A stretch of DNA of 64,000 nt from an uncultured Poribacteria bacterium. GTDB taxonomy: Bacteria > Poribacteria > WGA-4E > WGA-3G. Shown here in pieces: positions 3,835-33,090 of the stretch. The notes beneath the pieces were generated by a model, which worked only from the letters and a program-made list of their open reading frames with translations, ran no database searches and had not been told where the DNA came from. Numbering within the stretch: position 1 is the first letter of the stretch; each line of letters begins with the position of its first letter. The stretch spans positions 1,314,506 through 1,378,505 of the forward strand of contig OX638316.1 in assembly GCA_951812525.1 (NCBI GenBank), in the 5' to 3' direction. The position numbers and the translations under genes were made by a program.

Positions 3835-3895
3835 ATTCTTGTGCGACATCATCTAAAATAGGCACCCGAGAAATTTGTCGCAAACGGATTGGAAA

Positions 3896-4717
3896 ATGCA
3901 TCAAGAATACCTAAAAGCATTTGTAGATAAAGCAGATTCAGATGGACGTCCTTTAGCAGTATGGCTGGAAGGGAGCTTTGCAAAAGGAACCGCCGACAGA
4001 TACTCAGATATTGACATTCATCTATTAATCCTTGAAGAAGACAAAACGGCTTTCCAACAAAACTTAGAATCTTGGCTATCTGATGTTCAACCGCTGGTTC
4101 TCTTTAGAGAGACATTTGCCGGACAGATGACAACCTGCATCACTACAGCAGGCTTACGACTTGATGTGTGGTTACACGCTGGAGATACAATTTCTCTTGA
4201 ACGCACTAAGGTTCATGTATTGTCTGCTGCTGAAGGGTCCATCCAATTCAAGGAAGCGAGTAGAAATAAGGATCCGAAAGATGTTAGCACAGCACTAACG
4301 CAGCATTTTAACGAGTTTTGGCGCGTCTTTGCCATTCTTCCCACAGCTTTAGGACGCGATGAGTGTATTGCCGGATCTATGGGCATTACATTTCTCGTGA
4401 TGTCGCTGACCGAAGTCCTCATCATAGGGAATGGAAATCAAAGGGACAGAGGTATAAAAAATATCAATGCCTTTGTTCCACAAGCACTCAGAAAAGAGAT
4501 CGAAACTGCGTTGACAAGGCAAAGCATTAATAGAGAAAGTATTACCAAAACAAATCTCCGGTTAACAGCCATTATGCAACGGTACGGACCCGACATCGCA
4601 AAACAGCACGGCGTAATTTACCCTCTCGACTTAGAAAAAGCAGTCCTCAATTATGTCTCCAGAGAATTGCAGATATTAGGACTTTCCGATTGCTTAAACG
4701 AATTATACAGGCTTTAA
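3896..4717 (+). CDS. Nucleotidyltransferase-domain protein
   Basis: A 273-residue protein whose N-terminal third carries the polymerase-beta-type nucleotidyltransferase signature 'GSFAKGTADRYSDIDIHLL' (GS...DxD, two metal-binding Asp). A third acidic position is likely in 'GLRLDVWLH'. The C-terminal half is helical. The layout resembles aminoglycoside nucleotidyltransferase-like and other small-molecule adenylyltransferases, so it may transfer AMP to an unknown acceptor. ATG 3896 has GGA 7 bases upstream. A TTG at 3875 in the same frame would add seven residues. No HEPN partner gene is adjacent. Confidence 0.75.
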   Translation: MHQEYLKAFVDKADSDGRPLAVWLEGSFAKGTADRYSDIDIHLLILEEDKTAFQQNLESWLSDVQPLVLFRETFAGQMTTCITTAGLRLDVWLHAGDTISLERTKVHVLSAAEGSIQFKEASRNKDPKDVSTALTQHFNEFWRVFAILPTALGRDECIAGSMGITFLVMSLTEVLIIGNGNQRDRGIKNINAFVPQALRKEIETALTRQSINRESITKTNLRLTAIMQRYGPDIAKQHGVIYPLDLEKAVLNYVSRELQILGLSDCLNELYRL

Positions 4718-6636: not shown

Positions 6637-9600
6637 ATGAGAATTTGTAGTAGGAGTAAGCACAACTCGCGACGTTTCAGCGCCATAGTAAATTCAACCG
6701 TACAATATATGCGTGCAAGCTGGACTGTAATGCTCTGCATCGCTATTTTACTCGCCAGTGGACTCTGCAACACCGCATACACCCAAACCGTTTCCAGCAC
6801 CGGTATGAAGACCGCAGCTATCCAGATCCGGGATGACCTATCCATCGGCAACATGCGGAAGGACATTGCCCGTCTGTCAAGCTTGGAGAGCCGCGTAACG
6901 GGCTACCCGCAAGCCGCAAGCGGTAGTAAGTACATCTTTGACCGATTCGTCGAAACCGGCTTGCAAAACGTGGAGAGCCGCGAGTTCCCTGTCACTGTGC
7001 CGATTGATCACGGCGATAGCATCATTGAAGTAATCTCACCAGAAGGTGCTGTCCTACATAGTTTCAAACTCACCCCACTGTGGCCGAATCTCGTCCGGAC
7101 TTCTCTATTGGCGGACGGAATTAAGCATATCGTTTTAGCAGATGAAACACTCCAAGACATTGCCGCAAGTTACCAGATTCCCGAAGAGGTTATCCTCGCA
7201 GATGAACGAAACAAATTCTTGGCAAGCCCTGTTGTGGAAGGAAGCAGTATATACATTCCAACAGGTGGTCTATCCGGTCCCCTCCTTTACGGCGACGACG
7301 GCGAACTTGCCGACTTTAACGGCACCAATATCGGTGGATTCTGGTATGAACTTCAAGACGGAGATACCCTCACATCGCTTGCTCGACGCCACCTCATCAC
7401 AGAAGCCAGCATTACTGATGACGTACTCAACGAACATCTACAGAAAGCATCTGACGGTATTGACAATGATGAAGATGGCACTATTGATGAATACGGCGAA
7501 ATTCCACTCCTTTCCGAGATTCGCGGATGGGCAACAGACGGCATCGATAACGATGCCGACGGTTGGACAGACGAAACCCCTGGTGACGCTACTGACGGCA
7601 TTGACAACAACAACGACGGAGAAATCGATGAATCCGGTGAATTTGTCGCTGCCAGCGAAGCACATATTTTCATCCCAAAAGGTGCTATAGTCCTCCTCGA
7701 ATTCAACTCCAGTACCCGCTACATCAATGCTACAATGCTCGGTGGCACCGCTATTATCTTTATTGAACCCGATACAACGATCCGAGGCGAAGCAGAGAAC
7801 AAATTCGGTACAGTCCCTGCCAACATACCGCGATTCTGGATCTCTAAAGCAGATGCTGCCTTCCTTACTAATCTGCTTGAACAAGAGCACAACGCAGGAA
7901 ATCAGGTAGATGTTCGCGTCAGAGGTAGAATGACTTGGGAACGCCGTGTCGGCCAGAATATACGCGGCTTTCTAGAAGGAGGCGACCCATCCCTGCGGGA
8001 TGAACTTATCGTCCTTACCGCTTACTACGATTCCATGTCTATTGTGCCTGCCATGGCACCCGGGGCAGATCCGACCTGTGGTATTGCCGCCCTCATGGAA
8101 CTCGCGAGGCTTTTTAGTCAACCGCAATACCGTCCCGGCTATTCTGTCCTTTTTGTCGCAGTCGACGGACACTTCCAAGGGCTCGCTGGCATGCGGGCAT
8201 TCATGGAAGGCATCGGTCAGGACATTGTTGGTAGTGATACAGATGCCCCCGGCACACCGACGATGCACGGGCTGCGCCGTGGATTGTCTACGGATGTTAT
8301 CGAATTTGAAGAATTAGGTAGAAGACTTCTGCTCTCGATCGACCGGAGCGTCTTAGTCGATCTACCCTCTGATTTCTTCCACGGCATACACAACGTAAAG
8401 TCGGACTTGGAATCCTTGGCGACAACCTTAGATGGTTTAGCGGAAACCCGCAGTGAGATTGAATCCCTTACCAACCAGCAGCGCGATTTCTCAGAACGCC
8501 AGAAGAAGCAAGCAGATAAGAACCGAAAACGAGAGAAGCAAGAATTTACAGGCGAAGAGAAAAGCATATTATTGGCAAACCTCGCCCGTTCAAAGAAGGA
8601 AGCACTACAAACAACGCACTTCCTACGAGATACTGTCAATGAGTTAGCTGATGTACGTGCCGTTGCCCTAAACACAAGTCGAATAGCACAGAGTGAATTA
8701 ATCGTGGAACTTGCCCTGCCAATCGCTCGCCTCGACACGTGGGCTATAGAGAAACTGGTTAAGGCCATAGAAACCGGTGCCATCGACGAATATGCTACAA
8801 ATCCAAATGATGCCTATCTGGTTCCTGTAGAACAGAGTTCGGGTTGGCAAATTCCGGTCCCCGGAGACCTCCCGCAAGAACTCATCCCCGATATTGAGAT
8901 GCTGAACCAAACCCTCGCAGACTGGGAGATGAGTGATAAACGCAAATTCGCCCTAATATGGACGCCTGAGAAAATAATGGACCGGCATCTTGATTTACAC
9001 TCACTTAACAGAGTGAAAGAGGCACGCAGTGTCCTCCGCGATACCACCGAGTCCCAAGAAATCGCCGTTCAACGCGAAATCCAACTACTCGAAAAAATCT
9101 TAGCCCAAATCCCTGACAGCCAACCTTATGAAGACCAAATCAAGACGAGTATCCGCAAGCTCAAGGAAACATACACGTCCCAAGACCCCAACCCCTTGCT
9201 CTACAGCGGAAAATTCCTTTCCAAAGCCGGCATCGAACGCTTGAACACTATTGATACGCAACTCCGGCAACGCTTAACCGAATCCGAAGACCTGACCGAT
9301 GCCGCTGTCCTGATAGCTGACCTGCTTAAAGACAAACAGAGTATCTTTGAAATCGGACTCCGAAATGCCCGTCTGGAGCGGACCCGTATCGAAAACTTGA
9401 TCGCTACTTCTGGAACGCTCGGAAGAGAATACTTAGACGAAGAACAACTCATCTTGGAAAACTACCTCTCAGACGACGAAGTAGAACAAGCACTCAAGTT
9501 ACGTTCTCGCATCGCATCATACATCAGCGAAGCAGAACTGTTGGCAATTGCCAAAAAACGGTCAGAAACAGACATAGTCGCACTCGAAAACCTCCTTGAA

Positions 9601-12600
9601 AGGTTGCCTACACTGGATACCGACCTTGACGCAGAGACCAAGGTACTTCTGCGCGATAACATGCTAACCCTCCGAAATGCGCGATTCCGCAACATCCAGA
9701 GTCGTATTGAAAAGATGCTGCGCATCGATACAGGAGAATACAATCGGAAACTCGGACAGATTGAAGCCGCCATAGCACTTCAAGACCTTTTTAATCGCTA
9801 CTATACCTCTCTCTATGTTAGCATTGATCTCTCCTCGCAGTCGAATCAGTTCGGTGTATTCAACAAAGGATGGTTCTACGACCAGCAGCCCGAATTCGTT
9901 CTACGTCGCGAGTTCGCAAGCATCGGCAATCAACTTGCTTCCTACGCAGAAGATGCCGATTTTGGGGTCCGTGTCCGCAAACTTTGGCAATGGACCGATG
10001 ATCAGATCCGACAAGCTGTTATGGAACGTCAATGGACAGTCGCAGGCGGGATTTCCGATAAATCTGCCCTCGAAGGAAAAACCCTTGAAACCTTACTGAG
10101 TGCGCACTTCAGCAAACTCACCGGACTCAGCGGTGTGAGTCGCTTAATGAAGATGCAGTTCGAGCAGTGGCGTAACCAAGGCGAACCTTCCGAGGACATG
10201 CTTAAGGATATGGACTATATCCGCAAAGAGGTCGAGCGCTTCATCCGAAACGATGTCCGTACCGCAAAGAAAAACCGGAAGAACAATATCCGGACGCGCG
10301 AGCAGTTGGACGCAATGTTACGCCTCCGACACGAGGATCCAGACACTTTCTCAGACGACGAAATTGAGGACATCAAAACTCTTATTTCAATCGTAGGACT
10401 TGGTGGCGATTCAAACTTCGTTAACGCCATCTCTGCAAGTGGCGGAAAAACTTGGAAAACTTATATTCCCGGTAAGATTGCCTTCGACAGCGAAGTAGCA
10501 ACGCTCGTCGGAAAAACCGGTATCGCTTTTGCAACTATTGAAGACGCTCGCGTCTTAACCGACACACCCCTTGACACAATCGAACGGGTCGATTTGCAGG
10601 AAGGCGGTAATCTCCATCAGCAGGCACAGACACTCGCATCACTACTCATTCAAGCACTCCGCGACGAAGAAATGCCGACCGCCGCACGCGTCGGTAACTT
10701 CTACTGCAACCTCTTCGGCGATGTCGTTGAATTTGATGCACGCGAGTCCGCACTACCGAATAAACCTGTCCCCTATCCCATCTTGACGCTCCGCAGAAAA
10801 CATAAAAGTATGATGGGTGTGCGCGGAGATCTATTCGTCATGGGCGATAATAAGGGAAATTTTGAAGTTGCCGGATTAGCCATGGAAGGTAGAGCGACAC
10901 GACGTCTCAGAGGTGTACAAGAAGTCGAAGCATATATCCTTGACCCAGACTCTGGGGATATCGTCTATGCACCTGATTTAGGGAATTATGGCGCGAAACT
11001 CCTCCCCAATACAATCCCTATCAATACGCGTAGGCGTGGTTGTCGGATCGTCACATTCCCCTGTGTATCTACAACTATCTATGACCTCGTGGATCAGCGG
11101 TACCTGCGAACCCTTCGAGAACTCGAAGTCTACGACGCACTCACCGATAGTTCACCAGAGAAATTTGGGATGTCAAAACCGTGGCAGCAGGAAGGGGTAT
11201 CGGCAGCCGAACCGATTGCGCTCGTTTATAGCGAACCGAATACCCGCATTAAGGTCGGAATGGCTTATGGACAAATAGGCAAACGTCTCTTACTCATCAA
11301 AGCGACGAAGAGCGGAATGAAAAATCCAACGCTTTACACCGGCGAAGGGTTTGTCGTTCGTGAGAACGGACGGATTCGCCTTACCCCGTACGTCGTTGTC
11401 CGCGATATGTGGTGGCTCGATGAAAACCGATCACAACTCTATAAACGTTTCGGTATCTCCAGTGACCGACTTGACAAACTTCATCAATTTGCGAATGAGT
11501 ACCTCGCACGCGCAGAAACTGAACTGCTACAAAATGACTATCAGCAAGCCCTCAAACTCGCACGCGCCGCATGGGGTTATGAATCACGCGCATATCCAGA
11601 CGTCAAACAGACCGGTAACGATGTCGTCAACGGTGTGATGTTCTACCTCGCACTGTTAATGCCGTTCGCTTACTTTATGGAACGTCTCATCTTCGGTTTC
11701 CCGAACATTCACAAGCAGATTTTAGGCTCGTTTGGGATCTTTTTACTCGTATTCTTCTTCCTAAGCCAGGTCCATCCGGCGTTCCAAATTACAACGACTC
11801 CTGTGATTATCCTAATTGCGTTCGTTGTGCTTGCCTTAACAGTTATTGTGATTAGTATCATTGTCCGAAAATTCGAGGAACAACTCGAAAAAATTCGGCA
11901 GGAGGGAAGCAAGGTCTACAAAGCAGATGTCGGAAGGTTGAGTGCCAGTGCTGCAGCGTTTAGTTTAGGGATTTCCAACATGCGGAAACGGAAAGGACGG
12001 ACAGTCTTAACCTGCTGCACATTGGTAATCCTCACTTTTACCGTCATCTCATTTACCTCTGTGCGGACGTTCATGCATCCGAATAGAACGAGTCTCCCAC
12101 AGGTAACGCCTCGCTACACAGGACTCCTCATTCGTGACCAGTACTGGCGTCCGTTAGAGGAACCGGTGCTTACGTCTATCCTGAACGACATGCAGAAAAC
12201 GCAAATCACATTTACCGCCTTAGAACGGCTGCTCGAACGCAAAAACGAATTTCTTGTCAAGCAAGGACAACAACCGATTGATATTGCAGAAGCCCGAGCA
12301 ACTTTAGAAGAAGGCGGCTTTATTGAACAGGTAGACGAAGAATCTATCGTAGTCGTTCGGAATTCCGTCGCACCGCGAGCATGGTATCAATCCTCAGGTA
12401 CCGGAGACCAGTCTTTTGTTCAACTCACACGTACGGCGAACCCTGCTGACCCGTCCCCTCCGACGCATGCACTTACGGGTGAAGCATTAACCTTTGCTGC
12501 GAATATGCTCGTCGGAATGAATGAAGCAGAACCCGATGTCAGCGGTATCAATAGATACCTCCAATACGGAAAATGGTTCAATCCTGCTGACGCAGCGGAG

Positions 12601-13989
12601 TGGCCAACAGAATGGCCCTACGCTATTGTGCTACCTAAAGGGATGGCAGAATTGCTGAAGATCACCGAAAGCGATATGGGGAAGGCAACCGTCTCTGTCT
12701 ATGGTGCCGACTTTACCGTTGTCGGTGTCCTCGGCATCGGTTTCAAGGACCTCACAGACAACGATGGCGAAGAATTAACGCCAGTTGACTATCAATTGAT
12801 GCAACAGCAACGGAGTCGCGGTGCAACTGGTGATGAAACACTCGAAGGTGAGTTACAGAAATATCTTCATCTCACACCAGACAGTGTCGCCATTCTCCCT
12901 TATGATGTGGTCATGAATCAAGGTGGCACGCTTCGAAGCGTCGCCGTCAACATGGAACCACAAGAGGATGACCCGGAACTGTTAGGGGCAATTGATAAGT
13001 TGGACCTCATCATGGCACCCCTCATGAACCGCATCGCTCTCGACTTTTTCGTAGGACGCGATAAAGACACATACCTCTACAGCAGCATCGGAATGACGAG
13101 TTTTAGCGGGATGGGTAACCTATTCGTGCCGATCCTAATTGCTGCTCTCATTGTCCTTAACACCATGCTTGGAGCAGTCTATGAACGGGTCCGAGAAATT
13201 AGTATCTATAGTTCTGTCGGACTCGCACCCGTACATATTGCCTTCCTATTCCTCGCAGAGGCGTGTGTATACGCTATTGTTGGCGCAGTGCTGGGATACC
13301 TCATGGGACAAGCAATCGCAACAACGCTTGTAAACTTCGGATGGCTTGCCGGGTTGACACTCAACTATTCCTCAATGTCAACCGTCGTTGCAACGATTAT
13401 CGTTATGCTTGTTGTTCTACTCAGTACCATGTATCCGGCAATCAAAGCATCACGGATGGCGGTCCCCGATATCGAACGTAAATGGAAGCTTCCGGAACCC
13501 GAAGGCGACGTATGGCACTTCAATCTCCCCTTTACCGTTCTTGAAGAGGAAGCACTCGGCTTGAATGTGTTCATGCGCGACTATTTCGAGGCACACGCAG
13601 ACGAGTCTGCCAGCGATTTCTATACCGACCAAGTCGCGTTTAGCGCTGTGGAATCCGAAGGCGAAGATGCCTATCAGATTAGTATGATGGTATGGCTGGC
13701 ACCCTATGACTTAGGTGTAAGCCAGTCTATTCAGTTCATTACATCTCCTGTAGGTGGAGAAGAGGAAGATCTCTACAAAATCACATTGGATGTACATCGC
13801 GAGAGTGGTGAGATCGCCTCTTGGAAGCGCGTAAACCGACGTTTCCTCAACCTACTGCGGAAACAACTCCTGATTTGGCGGACATTCAGCGTCGATATCC
13901 GGGCAGAATTCCATGAACGCGGTAGAACGGAAGGGACAGATGACCCAGCAACTGGTCAATTAGATCCTGTTCCAGCCCCAGCGGATTAA
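6637..13989 (+). CDS. Giant LysM / degenerate M28 / coiled-coil / FtsX-permease protein
   Basis: 2450 residues. Order seen: a hydrophobic signal or anchor (about 29-50); a LysM-like segment (about 171-212, 'TLQDIAASYQIPEEVILADE'); a second LysM-like start ('DGDTLTSLARRHLIT'), interrupted by three DGIDN-x-x-DG acidic repeats (from residues 273, 301 and 320) before its closing 'HIFIPKG'; and an M28-peptidase-like domain (about 440-545). In that domain the first zinc His is Tyr463 (AYYDS), Asp478 is kept, and the catalytic Glu pair is replaced by D510-G511-H512, so it is probably inactive. Long coiled coils follow (about 590-1020), then membrane helices (about 1664-1748) and an FtsX/MacB permease core (about 1779-2290). 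The FtsX part needs a partner ATPase, and a LolD-type ATPase lies at 18130 in the same operon. ATG 6637 has GGGAG about 10 bases upstream. Confidence 0.82.
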   Translation: MRICSRSKHNSRRFSAIVNSTVQYMRASWTVMLCIAILLASGLCNTAYTQTVSSTGMKTAAIQIRDDLSIGNMRKDIARLSSLESRVTGYPQAASGSKYIFDRFVETGLQNVESREFPVTVPIDHGDSIIEVISPEGAVLHSFKLTPLWPNLVRTSLLADGIKHIVLADETLQDIAASYQIPEEVILADERNKFLASPVVEGSSIYIPTGGLSGPLLYGDDGELADFNGTNIGGFWYELQDGDTLTSLARRHLITEASITDDVLNEHLQKASDGIDNDEDGTIDEYGEIPLLSEIRGWATDGIDNDADGWTDETPGDATDGIDNNNDGEIDESGEFVAASEAHIFIPKGAIVLLEFNSSTRYINATMLGGTAIIFIEPDTTIRGEAENKFGTVPANIPRFWISKADAAFLTNLLEQEHNAGNQVDVRVRGRMTWERRVGQNIRGFLEGGDPSLRDELIVLTAYYDSMSIVPAMAPGADPTCGIAALMELARLFSQPQYRPGYSVLFVAVDGHFQGLAGMRAFMEGIGQDIVGSDTDAPGTPTMHGLRRGLSTDVIEFEELGRRLLLSIDRSVLVDLPSDFFHGIHNVKSDLESLATTLDGLAETRSEIESLTNQQRDFSERQKKQADKNRKREKQEFTGEEKSILLANLARSKKEALQTTHFLRDTVNELADVRAVALNTSRIAQSELIVELALPIARLDTWAIEKLVKAIETGAIDEYATNPNDAYLVPVEQSSGWQIPVPGDLPQELIPDIEMLNQTLADWEMSDKRKFALIWTPEKIMDRHLDLHSLNRVKEARSVLRDTTESQEIAVQREIQLLEKILAQIPDSQPYEDQIKTSIRKLKETYTSQDPNPLLYSGKFLSKAGIERLNTIDTQLRQRLTESEDLTDAAVLIADLLKDKQSIFEIGLRNARLERTRIENLIATSGTLGREYLDEEQLILENYLSDDEVEQALKLRSRIASYISEAELLAIAKKRSETDIVALENLLERLPTLDTDLDAETKVLLRDNMLTLRNARFRNIQSRIEKMLRIDTGEYNRKLGQIEAAIALQDLFNRYYTSLYVSIDLSSQSNQFGVFNKGWFYDQQPEFVLRREFASIGNQLASYAEDADFGVRVRKLWQWTDDQIRQAVMERQWTVAGGISDKSALEGKTLETLLSAHFSKLTGLSGVSRLMKMQFEQWRNQGEPSEDMLKDMDYIRKEVERFIRNDVRTAKKNRKNNIRTREQLDAMLRLRHEDPDTFSDDEIEDIKTLISIVGLGGDSNFVNAISASGGKTWKTYIPGKIAFDSEVATLVGKTGIAFATIEDARVLTDTPLDTIERVDLQEGGNLHQQAQTLASLLIQALRDEEMPTAARVGNFYCNLFGDVVEFDARESALPNKPVPYPILTLRRKHKSMMGVRGDLFVMGDNKGNFEVAGLAMEGRATRRLRGVQEVEAYILDPDSGDIVYAPDLGNYGAKLLPNTIPINTRRRGCRIVTFPCVSTTIYDLVDQRYLRTLRELEVYDALTDSSPEKFGMSKPWQQEGVSAAEPIALVYSEPNTRIKVGMAYGQIGKRLLLIKATKSGMKNPTLYTGEGFVVRENGRIRLTPYVVVRDMWWLDENRSQLYKRFGISSDRLDKLHQFANEYLARAETELLQNDYQQALKLARAAWGYESRAYPDVKQTGNDVVNGVMFYLALLMPFAYFMERLIFGFPNIHKQILGSFGIFLLVFFFLSQVHPAFQITTTPVIILIAFVVLALTVIVISIIVRKFEEQLEKIRQEGSKVYKADVGRLSASAAAFSLGISNMRKRKGRTVLTCCTLVILTFTVISFTSVRTFMHPNRTSLPQVTPRYTGLLIRDQYWRPLEEPVLTSILNDMQKTQITFTALERLLERKNEFLVKQGQQPIDIAEARATLEEGGFIEQVDEESIVVVRNSVAPRAWYQSSGTGDQSFVQLTRTANPADPSPPTHALTGEALTFAANMLVGMNEAEPDVSGINRYLQYGKWFNPADAAEWPTEWPYAIVLPKGMAELLKITESDMGKATVSVYGADFTVVGVLGIGFKDLTDNDGEELTPVDYQLMQQQRSRGATGDETLEGELQKYLHLTPDSVAILPYDVVMNQGGTLRSVAVNMEPQEDDPELLGAIDKLDLIMAPLMNRIALDFFVGRDKDTYLYSSIGMTSFSGMGNLFVPILIAALIVLNTMLGAVYERVREISIYSSVGLAPVHIAFLFLAEACVYAIVGAVLGYLMGQAIATTLVNFGWLAGLTLNYSSMSTVVATIIVMLVVLLSTMYPAIKASRMAVPDIERKWKLPEPEGDVWHFNLPFTVLEEEALGLNVFMRDYFEAHADESASDFYTDQVAFSAVESEGEDAYQISMMVWLAPYDLGVSQSIQFITSPVGGEEEDLYKITLDVHRESGEIASWKRVNRRFLNLLRKQLLIWRTFSVDIRAEFHERGRTEGTDDPATGQLDPVPAPAD

Positions 13990-14099
13990 AGTTGCTATCG
14001 CTGATTCGGTTTGAAACCGTGCCCTAGGTACACCTTCAAAAACGCACCGAGTGCGACGAGAGGAAGTCATACTCGTTAAGGAAAATAATTGGAAAGAAA

Positions 14100-14273
14100 A
14101 TGGAAAAATTAGCAAGCCTTATCATTATTATTGGCACTTTCTTATGGCTGTTCAGCATTCTAGTCCTCGAAGGACGTTGGCAGTGGCAGATGTTCTCAGC
14201 ACTTGTGTTGATAATTGGCATCTTCTGTGCGCATTTCTGGGAAGAATTGCGAGACACGGACAGCGACGAGTAA
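14100..14273 (+). CDS. 57-residue two-helix membrane protein
   Basis: A short open frame from ATG 14100 to TAA 14271-14273. The product has two hydrophobic segments ('LASLIIIIGTFLWLFSILVL' and 'MFSALVLIIGIFCAHF') joined by a short Trp-rich turn, and an acidic tail ending DTDSDE. A purine-rich GGAAAG lies 5-10 bases upstream. The stop is 19 bases before the TTG start of the next gene, whose ribosome site overlaps this gene's stop region. Tight packing within the operon and the clean hydrophobic pattern argue that it is real. I do not recognise a family. It could be an accessory subunit of the neighbouring membrane complex. Confidence 0.6.
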   Translation: MEKLASLIIIIGTFLWLFSILVLEGRWQWQMFSALVLIIGIFCAHFWEELRDTDSDE

Positions 14274-14292
14274 GGAAAGGAGAACATACGAT

Positions 14293-16281
14293 TTGGCGAG
14301 AGAAAGAGTATCACAAGCAGATGAATGGCAATCTTGGGCGAATCGATACGACATTGAAGGCGGTATCCGTACCTTTGAGTCGGGGTTAACGGTTAAGGTG
14401 TTTGTTGGAGCACTTTTCGTTGGCTTGTTGATGATGCCGGGCTCCATTTATCTCAGTTATGTATCCGGTCAATCCGGGGCTGAAGCAGCACCTTGGGTTG
14501 CCGTCATCCTATTCACCGAGCTCGCGCGACGCTCCTTTACAACCGCACGGCGACAGGAGCTCTATATGCTCCTCGCACTAACTGGTGCCGCTGTTGGTAG
14601 CGGGATGCAGTACCGGAACTTTATCTGGTACGCTTACTTTATCAACACACCGCAGGCAGCTTCTTATGAAATCGCCGACAAAATTCCGGAGTGGATTGTG
14701 CCAGCAGGTGATTCCGTCGGGGTCCTCACGCGAAGTCTGTTGCACCCTGACTGGTTCCTGCCTATTGCTATCTACCTTGCCGGAAAGTTTCTCGGCACCT
14801 TGCGATTTGTCAGCGGGCAATATATCTTGTTCCGCCTCACGGCTGACCTTGAGCGACTTCCGTATCCAATGGCACCAATCCAAGCACAAGGCGCAACTGC
14901 TCTCGCAGAAACGACTGGCAAGGAAGAGACATGGCGGTGGCGAGTCTTCTCTATCGGTTCTATGGCAGGGCTGATCTGGGGATTCCTCTATATCGGTGTG
15001 CCTTCACTCACCGGGGTCATGATGAGCCAACCGATTCAGATCCTGAAAATCCCGTGGATAGACTTCACACAAAGTATTGAAGGTTTCGCACCAACAGGGG
15101 TCTTTGCTTTCCGAACAGACTTTGGACAGATGCTCATCGGGTTCGTGATGCCATTCCCAATTGTCATGTCAGAGTTTATCACTGCCATGGCAACACAATT
15201 TATCTTGAACCCACAAATCCTATACCGGTATGAGATCCTCCACCAATGGACTCCCGGATTGGATGTCCGCGGTGCTACCCTGTTCAACGGTCTAGACTTC
15301 TGGATTAGTGCAGGCATGGGTAAATCCTTTAGTCTCGCGCTTGTCGGTATGGCGGCTTCAATTCCGATGCTCATTAAACTACGGAGATCCCAAAAACAGG
15401 CAGGCGAACGCGGTTCTTTTGCGACACCTCCGAACCGGGGCGATTTTCCAATCTGGCTGATGGGCGGAATGTGGCTCATCGGTATGGTTGGGTTCGTCTG
15501 GCTTATCCATTGGATGGTCCCGAATTTCCCACTCAGTTTCTTGGTCGGATATGCCTTCCTATACACGCCGATTAATTCCTATATTACTGCACGAACTTAC
15601 GGTGTTTTAGGACGAGACCTGTTTGAAATACCATACTTGCACGAAATCACTTTTATCTTGAGCCGCTATGAAGAGATTGACATCTGGTTCGCACCGCTAC
15701 CAGACGAAGATTATGGACGCGGCACACAAGGTTGGCGAGTACTCGAATTGACTGGCACAACCTTTACCTCAAACCTCGCAGCTACACTACTAATTATGCC
15801 GATTCTGCTCGTCAGTGGGATTGTCGTCCTTCACTTTATCTGGAAGATTGCACCTATTCCGAGCGCGCAGTATCCATTTGCACAGATGATGTGGCCCATT
15901 AACGCCACAAACGAATGTCTCTGGAAAACATCGCTCCGAGATGGAAACAGCCAGATGCTCCAAGCCATTCGCGGCGATTATGTCGCCGCAGGGTTCACAT
16001 CAAGTCTCGCTCTTTATGGCATGCTGTGGGTATTCAAACTACCTTCAATGTGGTTCTACGGTATTATCGGTGGTCTCGGCACAGACCCAGGAAGTATGGT
16101 TGCACGGCTACTCGGCGCAGTTATCGGGAGATTTTACATGATCAAGCGATTCGGAATGCGGCGTTGGTATATGTTTAACCCCGTGCTTGCAGCAGGATTC
16201 GCCTGCGGGGTCGGTCTCATCGGTATGGGAACTGTTGCAATTGCCCTTGTTTCCAAAGCCGTTATCGTGAAGCCATTCTAA
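14293..16281 (+). CDS. DUF6785-like polytopic membrane protein
   Basis: 662 residues from a TTG start at 14293, chosen because AAGGAG (14277-14282) lies 10 bases upstream and the protein then begins 'ARERVSQADEW'. Upstream sequence in the frame is the shifted shadow of the 57-residue gene. About a dozen or more membrane helices are visible, with large loops carrying 'FTELARRSFTTARRQELYML' and 'ERLPYPMAPIQAQGATALAE'. The latter strongly resembles loops in the DUF6785/oligopeptide-transporter-like group found in Planctomycetes and Poribacteria. A transport role is likely and the substrate is unknown. It is the third gene of the 6.6-18.9 kb operon. Confidence 0.75.
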   Translation: MARERVSQADEWQSWANRYDIEGGIRTFESGLTVKVFVGALFVGLLMMPGSIYLSYVSGQSGAEAAPWVAVILFTELARRSFTTARRQELYMLLALTGAAVGSGMQYRNFIWYAYFINTPQAASYEIADKIPEWIVPAGDSVGVLTRSLLHPDWFLPIAIYLAGKFLGTLRFVSGQYILFRLTADLERLPYPMAPIQAQGATALAETTGKEETWRWRVFSIGSMAGLIWGFLYIGVPSLTGVMMSQPIQILKIPWIDFTQSIEGFAPTGVFAFRTDFGQMLIGFVMPFPIVMSEFITAMATQFILNPQILYRYEILHQWTPGLDVRGATLFNGLDFWISAGMGKSFSLALVGMAASIPMLIKLRRSQKQAGERGSFATPPNRGDFPIWLMGGMWLIGMVGFVWLIHWMVPNFPLSFLVGYAFLYTPINSYITARTYGVLGRDLFEIPYLHEITFILSRYEEIDIWFAPLPDEDYGRGTQGWRVLELTGTTFTSNLAATLLIMPILLVSGIVVLHFIWKIAPIPSAQYPFAQMMWPINATNECLWKTSLRDGNSQMLQAIRGDYVAAGFTSSLALYGMLWVFKLPSMWFYGIIGGLGTDPGSMVARLLGAVIGRFYMIKRFGMRRWYMFNPVLAAGFACGVGLIGMGTVAIALVSKAVIVKPF

Positions 16282-16417: not shown

Positions 16418-17452
16418 ATGGACTGGAACGTTTTTGGCTGGGCAGGGATACAACTTGAAATCCCAACAACGTGGGAACTCAGCGGACTCAGTGGAGATCA
16501 GAAAACAGGTTACCTGCGGCTCGACGACGCAGAGATGCCGCGCCTTGAACTCAAATGGGCGCACACCCGGCGCAAAAAACCGGATCTCCACACAACGCTT
16601 GACGAATATTTCAAGCTGATTCGCAAAACTTACAAGAAAGGTGCTGAACTTTCCTTCCGACGGAACGTCAATCTCATCAAAGACCCTGAGTTTTTTGAGG
16701 GACGTACTGTCCTCGGTTTTAGTTGGAAAGGCAGTATCCGTGCCAACGGGCTGATCTTCCATGCCGGAAATCGGATTACGATTGTACAGGTGATGGGACG
16801 GCTCAAAGAGAACTGGCGCCCCATAGTCCTTCGTATTTTTCAGTCAATTGTGGATAAGGGTAACGCACCACAGACGCTTTGGAGTGCTTACGGACTCAAG
16901 CTGGGTGTTCCGAGAGAATACAAATTAGAACGCCAGAAACTACTAAGCGGCTACCTATTATTCGCCTTCGTCGCCAGAAAAGAACGCTTTCAAAGTGTGA
17001 CACGACTCGCTAAATTAGCAAGTAACCGCTTGCGGAACAATGGTACAGTTGAATACAAAAAACCCCTACCGTCTGACAGAGGGAGCCTCAGCGTCGAACG
17101 GTACGGTCCAGCGGAGGTAATGTTAGGGGACTACGAGGACACATCAAACCCGCTTGAGACGTGGTTTCGCGCCAAATACGCAAAAGCGATTAGAGGCTAC
17201 GGGTTTGAAGTAACATCACATACAGACACCGAAGACGAACATCTCACACTGATTGGACAACAGACACGGCTTTACGATGGCATACCGCTCTCACCCGTGC
17301 TGATGCTCGATAAATTATCCAAACGGACAACGCTCGTATTTCATCTATGGCGATGCAATCACTCTAATCGTATCTACGTTATTCAGTCTATCAGCAGTAT
17401 GAATGCGCAACCGACTGTCCAAAAGGTCGCTGAAAGCATCGAATGCCATTAA
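16418..17452 (+). CDS. Tandem PsbP/DcrB-like two-domain protein
   Basis: 344 residues with no signal peptide. Two similar halves can be aligned by eye: 'WAGIQLEIPTTWELSGLSGD' near residue 8 and 'YGLKLGVPREYKLERQKLLS' near residue 155. Each opens with a beta-hairpin followed by a YLR/YLLF strand and ends with a hydrophobic strand plus helix. This arrangement is typical of PsbP/DcrB-like alpha-beta domains, which often sit in envelope-associated proteins without enzymatic activity. The match is at fold level only. It lies between the DUF6785-like and PqqD-like genes. No good ribosome site precedes ATG 16418. Confidence 0.6.
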   Translation: MDWNVFGWAGIQLEIPTTWELSGLSGDQKTGYLRLDDAEMPRLELKWAHTRRKKPDLHTTLDEYFKLIRKTYKKGAELSFRRNVNLIKDPEFFEGRTVLGFSWKGSIRANGLIFHAGNRITIVQVMGRLKENWRPIVLRIFQSIVDKGNAPQTLWSAYGLKLGVPREYKLERQKLLSGYLLFAFVARKERFQSVTRLAKLASNRLRNNGTVEYKKPLPSDRGSLSVERYGPAEVMLGDYEDTSNPLETWFRAKYAKAIRGYGFEVTSHTDTEDEHLTLIGQQTRLYDGIPLSPVLMLDKLSKRTTLVFHLWRCNHSNRIYVIQSISSMNAQPTVQKVAESIECH

Positions 17453-17507: not shown

Positions 17508-17975
17508 ATGATCAATAGACTCCTATACACTCTCAAACTTAAGAAACGTCCTGATGTAGACCGCACAAAGGTCATGAAATCGTTTCCAGTGCGAAACCAG
17601 TTGATTACCTGGGAGATAGACGACAAAGGTGAAGCGTCGCTTGTCGTCCCACAGAAAGATAAACTCTGGATACGACTCGCAAGTAAATTCTTTATGCTCC
17701 CTAATAAAAGGGTGATTGTCTTAGATTCTATCGGGACTTATGTCTGGCAGATGTGCGATGGAAAACATACCATCTCACAGATTATTAAGAGTGTCCAAAA
17801 CCAGTATCAACTGACTCGAAAAGAGGCAGAAACGTCGCTTTTTACGTTTATGCAGCAGCTTGGGAAACGGAACTTCATAGGGTTTGCCATCCCTAACACC
17901 CAACAGAACGCACCGGCAACCCCAGAACTCGAACCCGAAAAACAGAGCCTTTTTGGATTCCTACAGAAACGGTAG
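17508..17975 (+). CDS. PqqD-family (RRE-fold) protein
   Basis: 155 residues. The middle carries the PqqD pattern: 'RVIVLDSIGTYVWQMCDGKH' then 'TISQIIKSVQNQYQL' and 'EAETSLFTFMQQLGKRNFIG', a winged-helix-like fold. PqqD proteins bind precursor peptides in PQQ and other RiPP pathways, but many PqqD-like proteins sit in operons with no such pathway. No radical-SAM or other peptide-modifying enzyme is in this window, so a peptide-binding role is only a possibility. The N-terminal 60 residues are basic and the tail is rich in Pro, Glu and Gln. Confidence 0.78.
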   Translation: MINRLLYTLKLKKRPDVDRTKVMKSFPVRNQLITWEIDDKGEASLVVPQKDKLWIRLASKFFMLPNKRVIVLDSIGTYVWQMCDGKHTISQIIKSVQNQYQLTRKEAETSLFTFMQQLGKRNFIGFAIPNTQQNAPATPELEPEKQSLFGFLQKR

Positions 17976-18129: not shown

Positions 18130-18942
18130 ATGAACGTCCCAACAGAAATAGGCGATGTTGATGCAATTCTCGCCGAAACACCGGAAAAATTCCAGCGCAT
18201 CCTGCCAAAAGAAAATACAGTCCGCGTGCGGAACCTCATTAAACGCTATGAGATGGGCACGCAGACCGTTGATGCACTCCGCGGTGTTAATTTCCAAATT
18301 CAGCGCGGCGAATACATCTCAATCATGGGTCCCTCTGGCTCCGGAAAATCAACGCTCTTCAATATGATTGGCGGACTCGACAAACCCACTGAAGGCAGAG
18401 TCTACATCGACGAAGTAGACATCGCTCAGCTTGACGCGTACGAACTCGCATGGCTCCGCTGCCGAAAGATCGGTTATATCTTCCAAGCGTTTAACCTCAT
18501 CCCTGTCATGACAGCACTCGAAAACGTCTCTCTCCCGATGATTTTTGCTGGTATGAGTGCAGATGAAAGTAGAGAAAAGGCAGTCAGCCTGCTTGCCCTT
18601 GTCGGACTGGGTGACCGCGTGCAACACAAGCCGTTAGAACTCTCCGGTGGACAGCAACAGCGCGTTGCAATCGCACGCTCCCTCGCGAACGATCCAGCGA
18701 TTGTCCTCGCCGACGAGCCAACAGGAAACCTCGACACCAAAACCGGGTTAGAAATTATTGCCCTGCTTCGTCGACTTAATGCTGAAAATGGCGTAACCAT
18801 TATCACCGCAACGCACGACCACAAGATGTTAGATGTCTCCGACCGGATCTTCCACATGGCGGATGGAAAAGTCGATAAGATTGAATCTCGAGATGAGATC
18901 GACCTCCACGTCGGTAAATTAGACGGCGAAGAAGTCGGGTAA
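18130..18942 (+). CDS. LolD/MacB-type ABC transporter ATPase
   Basis: 270 residues with every ATPase motif: Walker A 'GPSGSGKST' (about 75), Q-loop in 'GYIFQAFNLIP', signature 'LSGGQQQRVAIARSL' (about 175), Walker B 'AIVLADEPTGNLD' and H-loop 'THD'. The sequence belongs to the subfamily that pairs with FtsX/MacB/LolC-type permeases. The FtsX-like core of the giant protein at 6637 is the obvious partner in the operon. About 30 extra N-terminal residues ('MNVPTEIGDVDAILAETPEK') precede the usual domain. AAGGAG lies about 8 bases before the ATG. Confidence 0.93.
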   Translation: MNVPTEIGDVDAILAETPEKFQRILPKENTVRVRNLIKRYEMGTQTVDALRGVNFQIQRGEYISIMGPSGSGKSTLFNMIGGLDKPTEGRVYIDEVDIAQLDAYELAWLRCRKIGYIFQAFNLIPVMTALENVSLPMIFAGMSADESREKAVSLLALVGLGDRVQHKPLELSGGQQQRVAIARSLANDPAIVLADEPTGNLDTKTGLEIIALLRRLNAENGVTIITATHDHKMLDVSDRIFHMADGKVDKIESRDEIDLHVGKLDGEEVG

Positions 18943-26533: not shown

Positions 26534-27769
26534 CTACTCATGACGCAGTGCTTCCGTTGGCGTGAGACCGGCAGCCTTGTTTGCCGGATAGAGCCCGAAA
26601 AACACGCCGATAAATGCCGAGACACCAAACGCAATCAAAGCAGCTTCTACAGACACAACAGCAGGCCAACTCGCCTGCATGAGTTTTGAAATAACCAGCC
26701 CAGAAACAGAAGCAAGGCTACTTCCGATAAAAATACCGATAAGCCCACCGCAAATGCTCAAAACGATGGCTTCCATCAGAAATTGAAGCAGAATGTCCTG
26801 ACGCCTCGCACCGAGGGCTTTGCGCAAGCCAATTTCACGAGTCCTCTCTGTTACGGAAACTAACATGATGTTCATGATTCCGATACCACCAACGAACAAG
26901 GCAACACTCGCAACCCCACCTAAGAGTATCTGAACAATCCGACTAACGTTTCCTACCTGTTTTATAATCTCTTTAGCCGTGAAAAATTCAAAATATTTCT
27001 CATCCCCGTGTTGCTGGCGCATAGCGACTTTGATTTCAGCGACTGCCTGATCGACCTTTTCATAACTCTCGGCTTGCGCCCACAAGAATATCCTACCTTT
27101 CTGTTGTCCGATAAACCGAATCTCCATCGTCGTAAGGGGGATAATCACCCGATTATCCCACCCTTCGCTCGCCATACTACTGCCTTTCTCCTCCATCACA
27201 CCAATGACAGTGAACCGCTCTGTGCCAACTCTAAGTTCAAGCCCTATCGGATCTTCCCTCTCAAACAGGTCTTTTTGAACTTCAGAACCGATCACACAAA
27301 CAGGTTCTCTCCGTTCCATGTCGCTCTGCGTAATAAATCTGCCCGCTTGAACGTACCAGTTATTCACCTCTTCATAGTAAGGTGTAACCCCTTCAAGATC
27401 AAGCGACTGATTAACGCCCTTATGCGATACGGTAAGATTCATCTGCGACCGTGCCGTAATTCCCTTAAGAGAAGGACAATTTTCAAGGAGAAATTCAAAG
27501 TCTTCGTATTCAATATACTCTGGATACTTATTCTCGATATATGAGCCATCCTCTCTCCGAAATGCCTCTTTTCTAAAGCAGACGATCAGTCCCGCACCAC
27601 CAATCCGTTCCAGTTCGGCGAGCATGAGGTGCTCTGCACCGCCGCCAACGGAAACAACCGCAACGACCGCTGCAATACCAATAATAATGCCGAGCGTCGT
27701 TAGCACAGAGCGCAACTTATTACGACGCAACGCTGTCATACCAACGGTAATACCTTGTGTAATCTGCAT
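26534..27769 (-). CDS. MacB/FtsX-type ABC transporter permease
   Basis: 411 residues: a cytoplasmic start and first helix ('LRRNKLRSVLTTLGIIIGIA'), a large extracytoplasmic domain (about 45-280), then three C-terminal helices with 'MNIMLVSVTERTREIGLRKA' typical of the MacB/FtsX core. It needs a separate ATPase. None lies next to it, and the nearest of the right subfamily is at 18130 on the other strand. It may serve in efflux or lipoprotein handling. Only a weak ribosome site (GAGA) precedes the ATG. Confidence 0.88.
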   Translation of the reverse strand: MQITQGITVGMTALRRNKLRSVLTTLGIIIGIAAVVAVVSVGGGAEHLMLAELERIGGAGLIVCFRKEAFRREDGSYIENKYPEYIEYEDFEFLLENCPSLKGITARSQMNLTVSHKGVNQSLDLEGVTPYYEEVNNWYVQAGRFITQSDMERREPVCVIGSEVQKDLFEREDPIGLELRVGTERFTVIGVMEEKGSSMASEGWDNRVIIPLTTMEIRFIGQQKGRIFLWAQAESYEKVDQAVAEIKVAMRQQHGDEKYFEFFTAKEIIKQVGNVSRIVQILLGGVASVALFVGGIGIMNIMLVSVTERTREIGLRKALGARRQDILLQFLMEAIVLSICGGLIGIFIGSSLASVSGLVISKLMQASWPAVVSVEAALIAFGVSAFIGVFFGLYPANKAAGLTPTEALRHE

Positions 27770-28970: not shown

Positions 28971-30077
28971 CTAATTACTTGTATTTTCACCGAAATGCGA
29001 GGAGACAACGACTAAATCAAGAATATTTACTATGCCATCACCGTTTACATCCGCTTTGATGGATTCCCCAGACTGACCGAATTGACCAGCAACAAGCACT
29101 AAATCCTGAATATTCACAGTGCCATCATCGTTTACATCCCACGGTGTAGGTGGTGTAGGAGGCGGTGGTATTTCTATAGTAGTCGTCGTTGTGATCTCAG
29201 CAGTCATCGTGCTATCCGTCCCAGAAGTCGCAGTTACACTAATAGCATAATCACCGGATCCTGTGAACAGGTCTCCAGCAACCTTGAGTGTAACCTCCGC
29301 AGATGCACCAGCATCAAGTTCAATTGACCTGTCACTCAGAGAACCAAGAACACTGCCTTCAATGCCAACTTCTGCTGAGGCTTCAAGTGAGACCGTATCC
29401 ATCATGTTTCCGGTATTCGTGACCGTGAGGGTATAACTCACACCCGCAACAGCATCCATCGTCGAGAGAACTGTATCCCCGACAATTTCTAAGGACACAC
29501 CTGCAACCACGGGAATCGGTGGGGTCGATTCCTCCTGTGCGGCGTAAATATAATCGTCTATAGGGTTGAAATTTCCATTGGAAGCGTTTCCAGCAGCATA
29601 GAAAGTAATAGGTCCTATATCCGTATCAGGGGCAGTCCATTCAAATTCCCAGCTGTTCGCATCGTTTCCGCCTGCAGTCCCTGCGGCAGTATGCTTAATA
29701 TACTGTTTACTGTTTGCTTCTGAAACTTGTGTATTTGCTGCAGCATCAACTGCAAAGGTTCCAGCACGTGCACCATCGGCATCCAACGCAGTCATCTGAA
29801 AGCCCCACTTGCTCTGCCCGGCACGCTCCAAATTAACAATAATCGTATACACCTCACCCGGTTCATAAGTATCGGGGGTTGTCAACATCAGTGAACCACC
29901 CGCAGTATTCAAGGCATTTCCAATATGGCAACCAGCAGTCACACAAGTGCCTTCATTCGGAGCACCGGTTTTTTCATCTGGAGGACCGGCAGTAAAACCG
30001 AACACGCTGCTACTGCTCGCAATGAAAAATAACAGCAGCAGCCCCCAAACAGGTAAGATATTTTTTCGATAATTCAA
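28971..30077 (-). CDS. Secreted choice-of-anchor V / dockerin protein
   Basis: 368 residues from a TTG start (30077) with AAGGAG seven bases upstream. A signal peptide (about 1-27) is followed by 'FTAGPPDEKTGAPNEGTCVT' and 'AGCHIG'. This is the choice-of-anchor V/Reeler-like opening, but with C-x4-C-H instead of the usual C-x2-C-H. A beta domain follows (about 60-190), then an Ig-like CARDB-type domain (about 195-300). The C-terminal type I dockerin has two calcium loops, 'DVNDDGTVNIQDLVLVAG' and 'DVNGDGIVNILDLVVVSS' (about 310-362). Dockerins bind cohesins, and the upstream neighbour at 30238 carries a cohesin-like domain. It probably acts outside the cell. Confidence 0.85.
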   Translation of the reverse strand: MNYRKNILPVWGLLLLFFIASSSSVFGFTAGPPDEKTGAPNEGTCVTAGCHIGNALNTAGGSLMLTTPDTYEPGEVYTIIVNLERAGQSKWGFQMTALDADGARAGTFAVDAAANTQVSEANSKQYIKHTAAGTAGGNDANSWEFEWTAPDTDIGPITFYAAGNASNGNFNPIDDYIYAAQEESTPPIPVVAGVSLEIVGDTVLSTMDAVAGVSYTLTVTNTGNMMDTVSLEASAEVGIEGSVLGSLSDRSIELDAGASAEVTLKVAGDLFTGSGDYAISVTATSGTDSTMTAEITTTTTIEIPPPPTPPTPWDVNDDGTVNIQDLVLVAGQFGQSGESIKADVNGDGIVNILDLVVVSSHFGENTSN

Positions 30078-30102
30078 ACAACTTCTCCTTCTGCGTATAC
30101 AT

Positions 30103-30177
30103 CAAAAAAAACGCCCCAACGCCGACTGCTAATCGGCGTTGATTCGCGGTTAGCTAAACCGGCAGATTGGGGCGTTT
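30103..30177 (-). terminator. Branched intrinsic terminator after the cohesin gene
   Basis: On the minus strand, an 11-bp outer stem (30167-30177 with 30109-30119) ends in eight T (30110-30103). Inside lie a 9-bp hairpin (30117-30125 with 30133-30141) and a small CGGTT/AACCG hairpin. The 9-bp hairpin shares three bases with the outer stem, so the two cannot both form fully. It lies between the cohesin gene and the dockerin gene and should limit read-through. Confidence 0.75.
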
Positions 30178-30237
30178 ACTTTTGAATAGCAAGTTTTGGC
30201 TTGCAAGCTTCGCCAAAAAGTGCTTTCGCTGCTATAT

Positions 30238-32733: not shown

Positions 32734-33090
32734 AAGGTACTCCTTACAATTCATTTATATTTTGACGTTTTCTCTCTGCCTTTTCAACAGAGATCGATTC
32801 CTCGTTGTTTAAAGGAAATCCATTGAGATCTAGGATATCCCCTGAGTTGGTATGCTTCCGTCAGACACCCAAAGGCGGTCGCTTAAACGAGGCTTTCCAA
32901 AAGAGAAGTCTATCCTAATATTAACAATTTTAAACGTTGTAAAATCAAATTCGGTTCAAATCGGGTAATCTTTCCCAAATAAATTAGGCGAACGTCCCTT
33001 ATTTATTTTTAAGTATACCACAGACTTGAAGATAAAACAAGAAAAAACTGACAAGACAAGCCGGAGTTTGTTAACTCACTCGCGAAAGAA
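32734..33090. other. Long leader region of the cohesin gene
   Basis: A 357-base gap. On the minus strand it holds the promoter at 33012-33040 and then a leader of about 275 bases with several GC-rich patches (for example CCGCCTTTGGGTGTCTGACG at 32860-32879) that could fold. I cannot match it to a known riboswitch. No open frame of note was seen. Confidence 0.5.
33012..33040 (-). promoter_or_regulatory. Sigma70-like promoter for the cohesin gene
   Basis: On the minus strand: TTGTTT (33040-33035), 17 bases, TATACT (33017-33012). It is the best promoter match ahead of the gene at 32733 and implies a leader of about 275 bases. Confidence 0.5.

What the first reader, a model, noticed from the sequence alone, without database searches (positions are those of the whole stretch)
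6637..13989. Giant envelope protein joining LysM-like parts, a dead M28 domain and an FtsX permease
The M28-like domain lacks the first zinc His (Y463), and the catalytic Glu pair is D510-G511-H512, while its fold motifs (GAD at 476-478, AVDG.FQGLAGMRAF) remain. It is fused through more than 400 residues of coiled coil to a MacB/FtsX core in one 2450-residue chain. I do not know this combination as a described family. It could sense or hold wall peptides while an ATPase drives the FtsX core, as FtsEX does for wall hydrolases.
Basis: partly seen in the sequence, partly recalled or inferred. Interest (0 to 1): 0.75.

Follow-up and report, generated by a model that had tools for sequence, protein, structure and literature searches.

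The report
ATP-driven envelope machine with re-wired aminopeptidase
This is one very large membrane protein, conserved in two bacterial phyla, that joins an aminopeptidase-like domain with a consistently altered active site to the membrane half of an ATP-driven "mechanical" transporter, and it is inherited together with several uncharacterised partners as an apparently undescribed envelope machine.

Summary
The 2450-aa ORF is real. It is intact and nearly universal in Candidatus Poribacteria (82 of 85 genomes). Shorter relatives (about 1,500 aa) occur in 198 of 291 Armatimonadota genomes. It is a transferrin-receptor/nicastrin-like module, a PA domain plus an M28 aminopeptidase fold. That module is followed by a beta domain, three extra TM helices, a MacB/FtsX (Type VII ABC) permease core and a conserved cytosolic tail.

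Two first-reader details change. The coiled coil is not a linker: it is inserted inside the M28 domain (residues 542-1049), and the LysM/DGxDN repeats are inserted near or inside the PA domain. The Glu pair maps to H512-F513.

The "dead" site is not decaying. D465, H512, D1064 and R1305 are invariant or nearly so in 130 members, D1309 in all but one, and position 478 is acidic in all but two, while classical zinc ligands are lost.

A second small FtsX (unlinked in Poribacteria) and a polytopic protein without known family co-occur with it in 181 of 205 Armatimonadota genomes holding any of the three. A LolD-like ATPase, a PqqD protein and a second unknown protein complete the operon.

Best reading: an asymmetric Type VII ABC machine with a receptor-like pseudo-aminopeptidase. 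Substrate unknown; a single-metal hydrolase is not excluded.

The parts
6637..13989 (+). Giant protein, 2450 aa: N-terminal hydrophobic segment (29-47), PA + re-wired M28 domain, beta domain, 3 TM helices, MacB/FtsX core, cytosolic tail
   Evidence: 82 of 85 Poribacteria genomes
6832..7101 (+). N-terminal part of the M28 domain (about residues 66-155)
   Evidence: alignment with Armatimonadota orthologues; their profile matches 2ek8 from its N-terminus
7114..7260 (+). First LysM-like segment (about residues 160-208), an insertion relative to most Armatimonadota orthologues
   Evidence: Foldseek tandem LysM 4uz2, prob 0.99; no Pfam match of its own
7333..7686 (+). Second LysM (about residues 233-350) interrupted by three DGxDNxxDGxxDE repeats that look like Ca2+ sites; insertion near/inside the PA domain
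   Evidence: Pfam LysM 22.5 bits at 237-260; repeats read from the sequence; insertion shown
7687..7932 (+). Rest of PA domain, with invariant R383, E387, R399
7933..8259 (+). M28 core, first half (residues 433-541): Y463 (AAP H97), D465 (D99), D478 (D117, D or E in family), H512-F513 (E151-E152)
8260..9783 (+). Helical insertion of about 500 residues inside the M28 domain, including predicted helices of 49 and 75 residues
9784..9951 (+). M28 strand carrying invariant D1064 (position of AAP D179 by inference)
9952..10377 (+). Second helical insertion (residues 1106-1247)
10378..10671 (+). C-terminal part of M28 with DxRxxxDTPxDT; D1309 replaces the last zinc His (AAP H256)
10699..11376 (+). 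Beta-rich domain (about residues 1355-1580)
   Evidence: AF2 model 2; weak Foldseek hits to pilin SpaA
11623..11862 (+). Three additional TM helices (about residues 1663-1742)
11974..13461 (+). MacB/FtsX permease core (about residues 1780-2275): TM1, periplasmic core, TM2-4
13483..13932 (+). Conserved cytosolic C-terminal domain without a known family
14215..16281 (+). Polytopic membrane protein (called G2 here; true start probably near 14290), no Pfam or PDB match, co-occurs with the giant
16418..17452 (+). Soluble protein G3 without known family, conserved in the operon in both phyla
17508..17975 (+). PqqD-domain protein (peptide-binding fold of the RRE type)
   Evidence: Pfam PqqD 9.2e-12; syntenic
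18130..18942 (+). LolD/FtsE-like ABC ATPase with intact Walker A, signature, Walker B and H-loop
   Evidence: 69% identical to the Armatimonadota operon ATPase

Best explanation
The protein is the large half of an asymmetric Type VII (MacB/LolCDE/FtsEX-type) ABC machine. It pairs with a small 4-TM FtsX protein (encoded in the same operon in many Armatimonadota, at an unlinked locus in Poribacteria) and is driven by a LolD-like ATPase. ATP binding and hydrolysis move the FtsX helices and, through them, the periplasmic part. That part is a PA-M28 module like nicastrin, nicalin and the transferrin receptor: it has lost the two-zinc site but keeps a nearly invariant acidic/His set of residues, and acts mainly as a ligand-binding or gating receptor for a peptide-like or membrane-derived substrate rather than as a classical aminopeptidase. 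In Poribacteria the module has gained LysM domains, probably gripping peptidoglycan, and long helical hairpins, probably reaching through the periplasm. The multi-spanning protein G2, the soluble protein G3 and the PqqD protein work in the same complex or pathway. SHOWN by sequence or predicted structure: domain composition, insertions, invariant re-wired site, synteny, co-occurrence. INFERRED: heterodimer with small FtsX, mechanotransmission, receptor role, wall contact. UNKNOWN: the substrate.
For: FtsX half: Pfam FtsX above cut-off; profile hits MacB 1.5e-17, LolF, YtrF, LolC; Foldseek MacB 3.2e-11, LolCDE, YbbAP. PA-M28 half: 2ek8 9.1e-24, YwaD, TfR, nicalin; Foldseek top six are the pseudo-M28 receptors nicalin, TfR and nicastrin. 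Site: D465, H512, D1064 in 130/130, R383/E387/R399 in 129/129 members covering them; four site positions all among the 36 most conserved of 441 columns, p about 4e-5 if columns were interchangeable. Second permease: best hit in own genome 9.3e-38 versus 3.6e-12 for the next, present in 80 of 85 Poribacteria. Co-occurrence in 291 Armatimonadota: giant + small FtsX 186 both, 12 and 4 alone, 89 neither; giant + G2 190, 8, 6, 87. Operon order kept across two phyla. Type VII machines that work on the periplasmic side with partner proteins, including a hydrolase, are established (PMC12646458).
Against: No complex was predicted or measured and model coordinates could not be inspected, so pocket geometry and the heterodimer are inferred. 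Near-complete conservation of H512, D1064 and D1309 would also fit catalysis. Fisher p-values ignore shared ancestry. In Poribacteria the small FtsX has its own ATPase next to it, so it might form a separate transporter. Foldseek TM-scores are low because of the large insertions.
Confidence: 0.55

Rival explanations
1. The M28 domain is a working hydrolase with a changed, probably single-metal site: D/E478, D1064 and D1309 hold one metal ion where Zn1 sat, and H512 replaces Glu151 as general base. The ABC engine presents substrate to it, as YbbAP does for TesA.
For: D465, H512, D1064 invariant, D1309 all but one, position 478 acidic in all but two of 130. The precedent for His at this position, AAP E151H (PDB 2anp), is described as functional (title). 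YbbAP-TesA is a Type VII ABC plus hydrolase.
Against: Three of five classical zinc ligands are replaced (H97->Y/F and others, E152->F, H256->D); an all-carboxylate site is not an M28 centre known to me. Position 463 varies to N, P, S in some members. The mapping of D1064 is inference.
Confidence: 0.25
2. An FtsEX-like regulator: the protein senses or holds wall peptides and mechanically activates peptidoglycan hydrolases.
For: Two LysM-like segments and long helical hairpins in the Poribacterial protein; FtsX-type core.
Against: LysM and long coiled coil are absent from most Armatimonadota orthologues, no hydrolase gene seen in the conserved operon, FtsX equivalog models far below cut-off.
Confidence: 0.12
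3. A peptide exporter or maturation system: the PqqD protein binds a leader peptide, the ABC machine exports it, and the M28 module handles it outside.
For: Conserved PqqD-domain protein in the operon in both phyla; PqqD/RRE domains bind peptides (general knowledge).
Against: Type VII systems typically do not carry substrate across the inner membrane (PMC12646458); no radical-SAM or precursor gene was noticed beside the operon (not searched systematically); near-universal presence in Poribacteria suggests a core function.
Confidence: 0.07
4. Artefact: the gene is a false join of frames or an assembly chimera.
For: Unusual size and composition.
Against: Same full-length ORF in dozens of independent assemblies, 50-95% identical; the same domain order without inserts in a second phylum.
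Confidence: 0.01

Closest known systems
YbbAP-TesA (E. coli Type VII ABC with a periplasmic hydrolase; PMC12646458)
   Same: Type VII permease plus ATPase coupled to an enzyme-fold periplasmic partner; permease with extra TM helices; YbbAP is a Foldseek hit
   Different: Partner is a separate esterase (TesA); here a PA-M28 domain with a changed site is part of the permease chain, and there are further conserved partners
LolCDE / MacB
   Same: FtsX/MacB core, LolD-like ATPase, probably two different permease halves as in LolC/LolE
   Different: No LolC or MacB orthologue (31.7 bits versus 473; 25.7 versus 966); large PA-M28 ectodomain and seven instead of four TM helices
Nicastrin, nicalin, transferrin receptor (PA-domain pseudo-M28 receptors)
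   Same: PA + M28 fold without the zinc ligands, used as receptor or gate in or before a membrane complex (function from general knowledge)
   Different: Eukaryotic, not fused to an ABC permease; the conserved acidic/His residues here were not compared with theirs one by one
Bacterial PA-M28 aminopeptidases (2ek8, YwaD; AAP E151H 2anp)
   Same: Closest sequence relatives of the PA-M28 part (9e-24); His at the Glu151 position as in 2anp
   Different: Active di-zinc enzymes without membrane or ABC parts
FtsEX-EnvC
   Same: Type VII mechanotransmission; coiled coil in the periplasm
   Different: FtsX equivalog cut-off missed (15.3 versus 255); coiled coil lies in the permease chain's own M28 domain; no amidase partner seen

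Membership tests
Type VII (MacB superfamily) ABC systems | FtsX-type 4-TM core with periplasmic domain between TM1 and TM2 | tested here: met
   Pfam FtsX 46.2 bits; MacB_PCD above cut-off in the Armatimonadota orthologue; model and Foldseek MacB 3.2e-11
Type VII (MacB superfamily) ABC systems | LolD/FtsE-like ATPase partner with intact motifs | tested here: met
   18130..18942, best NCBIfam match LolD 238.9 bits (below its equivalog cut-off), motifs intact, syntenic in both phyla
Type VII (MacB superfamily) ABC systems | Two permease halves in the complex | tested here: inconclusive
   Small FtsX co-occurs with the giant in 186 of 202 Armatimonadota genomes holding either; physical pairing not tested
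Type VII (MacB superfamily) ABC systems | ATP-driven work on the periplasmic side | not testable with these tools
   needs biochemistry
Active M28 peptidases | M28 fold | tested here: met
   Pfam above cut-off; 2ek8 9.1e-24; Foldseek
Active M28 peptidases | Five zinc ligands H97, D117, E152, D179, H256 (AAP numbering) | tested here: not met
   Y463, D/E478, F513, D1064, D1309; D1064 mapping is inferred
Active M28 peptidases | General base Glu151 | tested here: not met
   H512 in 130 of 130
PA-domain pseudo-M28 receptors (nicastrin/nicalin/TfR type) | PA domain plus M28 fold with lost zinc ligands | tested here: met
PA-domain pseudo-M28 receptors (nicastrin/nicalin/TfR type) | Common descent with the eukaryotic receptors, apart from active M28 enzymes | tested here: inconclusive
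   Closest relatives by sequence are bacterial active enzymes; no tree of M28 made
LysM proteins | LysM fold | tested here: met
   One above the Pfam cut-off, the pair by Foldseek to tandem LysM 4uz2
LysM proteins | Binding to peptidoglycan or chitin | not testable with these tools
   needs a binding assay
FtsEX | FtsX equivalog score | tested here: not met
   15.3 bits versus cut-off 255
LolCDE | LolC/LolE equivalog score | tested here: not met
   31.7 versus 473 and 17.8 versus 362
PqqD/RRE peptide chaperones | PqqD fold | tested here: met
   17508..17975, Pfam 45.6 bits, cut-off 23.4; NCBIfam equivalogs not met

The most novel reading that the evidence does not exclude
An undescribed Type VII ABC machine, core to Poribacteria and widespread in Armatimonadota, in which an M28 domain with a new single-metal, all-carboxylate plus His active site is built into the permease chain, so that ATP-driven motion directly controls access to or activity of that site, with two unknown partner families (G2, G3) and a PqqD protein.
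Probability: 0.22. Interest if true: 0.85.

Novelty: new variant of a known kind. Interest (0 to 1): 0.62.

Why it matters
Type VII ABC systems are classified by the partner protein that does the work outside the membrane (PMC12646458). Here the candidate working part is built into the permease chain, and it is a nicastrin-like fold with a nearly invariant, re-wired site. The system is close to universal in one phylum and common in another, yet at least two partners have no known family, so a whole envelope process in these bacteria may be unnoticed. It is usually single-copy in Poribacteria and held together by co-occurrence, and Armatimonadota include cultured species (general knowledge), so it can be tested.

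Tried and rejected
False join or chimera: rejected. Coiled coil as linker between M28 and FtsX: rejected; it is an insertion inside M28. FtsX or LolC orthology: rejected by NCBIfam cut-offs. G2 looked OPT-like by eye, but Pfam, NCBIfam and PDB profile searches gave nothing, so not claimed. G3 as DcrB/PsbP-like by eye: no profile support. Homology between the giant's cytosolic tail and G3: not supported (hhalign probability 0.6%); the tail has no PDB sequence relative, and the weak Foldseek PsbP hits were not followed up. Relatives in plasmids: only about 26%-identical M28 peptidases of Peribacillus. Literature: no paper with 'peptidase M28' and 'FtsX' together, none with Armatimonadetes, ABC transporter and PqqD. 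Other phyla could not be searched beyond one genome-contig scan with exact peptide patterns, so absence elsewhere is not claimed.

Full report
WHAT IS THERE. The window lies in a single-contig genome whose closest relatives on record are Candidatus Poribacteria. ORF 6637..13989 encodes one 2450-residue protein. It is not a join error: 82 of 85 genomes of the phylum hold it, most as one full-length frame at about 50-95% identity, from independent assemblies. Pfam finds LysM, M28 and FtsX above curated cut-offs.

THE ORTHOLOGUE THAT EXPLAINS THE ANATOMY. One genome scan found 1544-residue relatives in Armatimonadota (L104-L106, about 39% identical), and 198 of 291 genomes of that phylum have one or more. 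Aligning both shows that the Poribacterial protein is the short form plus insertions: LysM 1 (160-208), LysM 2 with three DGxDNxxDGxxDE repeats (233-347), a helical block of about 500 residues (542-1049) and a second one (1106-1247). The last two lie inside the M28 domain: between the H512 helix and the strand of D1064, and between that strand and the C-terminal part. Some Armatimonadota have shorter inserts at the same place.

PA-M28. A profile of the Armatimonadota module matches the PA-containing aminopeptidase 2ek8 at 9.1e-24, YwaD at 1.8e-16, and transferrin receptor and nicalin at about 1e-9. An AlphaFold2 model of residues 146-1345 (mean pLDDT 83.6) gives Foldseek best hits to nicalin, transferrin receptor and nicastrin, then glutamate carboxypeptidase II and the Aeromonas/Vibrio aminopeptidase (AAP); tandem LysM structures appear as well. 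TM-scores are low because the query carries the large insertions, and the first 145 residues had to be left out.

THE SITE. From profile alignments to 2ek8, YwaD and AAP: AAP H97 = Y463, D99 = D465, D117 = D478, E151-E152 = H512-F513, and the zinc His of the 'HTPxDT' motif = D1309. The last rests on motif matches that are not significant alone, and D179 = D1064 is my inference from the LDLSS context and the strand end in the model. Over 130 members D465, H512 and D1064 are invariant, D1309 is D in all but one, position 478 is D or E in all but two; R383, E387, R399, W434 and R1305 are also invariant or nearly so. In 35 diverse members four site positions fall among the 36 of 441 columns that are at least 97% identical. 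A decaying pseudoenzyme would not be expected to look like this. The classical two-zinc M28 site is lost, but a specific acidic/His set is kept. PDB 2anp, the AAP E151H mutant, is described as functional in its title, so His at 512 does not by itself exclude catalysis.

PERMEASE HALF. The profile of 1251-2450 matches MacB (1.5e-17), LolF, YtrF and LolC; the model (pLDDT 78.3) matches MacB, LolCDE and YbbAP. Hydropathy gives an N-terminal segment, three TM helices (1663-1742), then the four of the FtsX core. The conserved 150-residue cytosolic tail has no significant sequence relative in the PDB.

PARTNERS. In both phyla the giant is followed by G2 (about 670-690 aa, polytopic), G3 (about 300-345 aa), a PqqD protein and a LolD-like ATPase; in many Armatimonadota a small FtsX permease sits before the ATPase, and in one group small FtsX and ATPase stand upstream of the giant. 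G2 and G3 match no Pfam family or PDB chain. The window's genome has a clear relative of that small permease elsewhere (C1:362912-363583, E 9.3e-38, next hit 3.6e-12), beside its own ATPase, and 80 of 85 Poribacteria have it. Among 291 Armatimonadota genomes, giant and small FtsX co-occur in 186, alone in 12 and 4, absent in 89; giant and G2: 190, 8, 6, 87; all three in 181 of 205 with any. This holds although in several genomes (for example G161, G209, G237) the giant and the small permease lie on different contigs. The numbers ignore kinship and genome incompleteness. Four divergent giants (L163-L165, L173) have no operon partners beside them.

HISTORY. In a tree of the C-terminal half, Poribacteria and Armatimonadota are each one side of one branch; the root is unknown, so shared ancestry and one transfer are both possible.

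MECHANISM. Type VII ABC machines work on the periplasmic side through partner proteins (PMC12646458; MacB-family layouts in PMC5985334). The best-supported reading is an asymmetric machine of giant, small FtsX and ATPases whose built-in PA-M28 module binds or gates a substrate. The main rival is a hydrolase with a changed single-metal site; the FtsEX-like wall reading is weaker, because the wall-directed parts are a Poribacterial addition. Substrate and physical complex are unknown. YbbAP-TesA is the closest functional parallel.

NOVELTY. The parts are known kinds; their combination, the nearly invariant re-wired site and the co-inherited unknown partners appear undescribed in the searched library, which misses most subscription journals. 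Rated a new variant of a known kind.

Noticed in passing
window 28971..32754 (- strand): Neighbouring genes encode a Reeler + dockerin protein (28971..30077) and a cohesin + FlgD-Ig + Por_Secre_tail protein (30238..32754): a possible cohesin-dockerin pair in a Poribacterium.
   Followed up: no
window 26534..27769 (- strand): A separate, ordinary MacB-type permease with strong MacB_PCD and FtsX matches.
   Followed up: no
window 3875..4717 (+): TTG-start ORF with a match to streptomycin adenylyltransferase / nucleotidyltransferase families (Pfam 2e-8).
   Followed up: no
window about 14099..14281 (+): Small ORF of about 60 residues with two hydrophobic stretches between the giant and G2 (sequence); conservation not checked.
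   Followed up: no
L146:4926-12608 (G036:C41; also G039:C11): A second copy of the giant in family f2 genomes; in L146 no operon partners were found beside it.
   Followed up: partly
L169:12931-14529 and L170:2247-4082: In these Armatimonadota the small FtsX match is split by a stretch of about 1 kb, apparently an extra domain of its own.
   Followed up: no
L163-L165, L173: Divergent Armatimonadota giants stand without G2, G3 or the ATPase beside them, yet their genomes hold the small FtsX and G2 elsewhere.
   Followed up: partly
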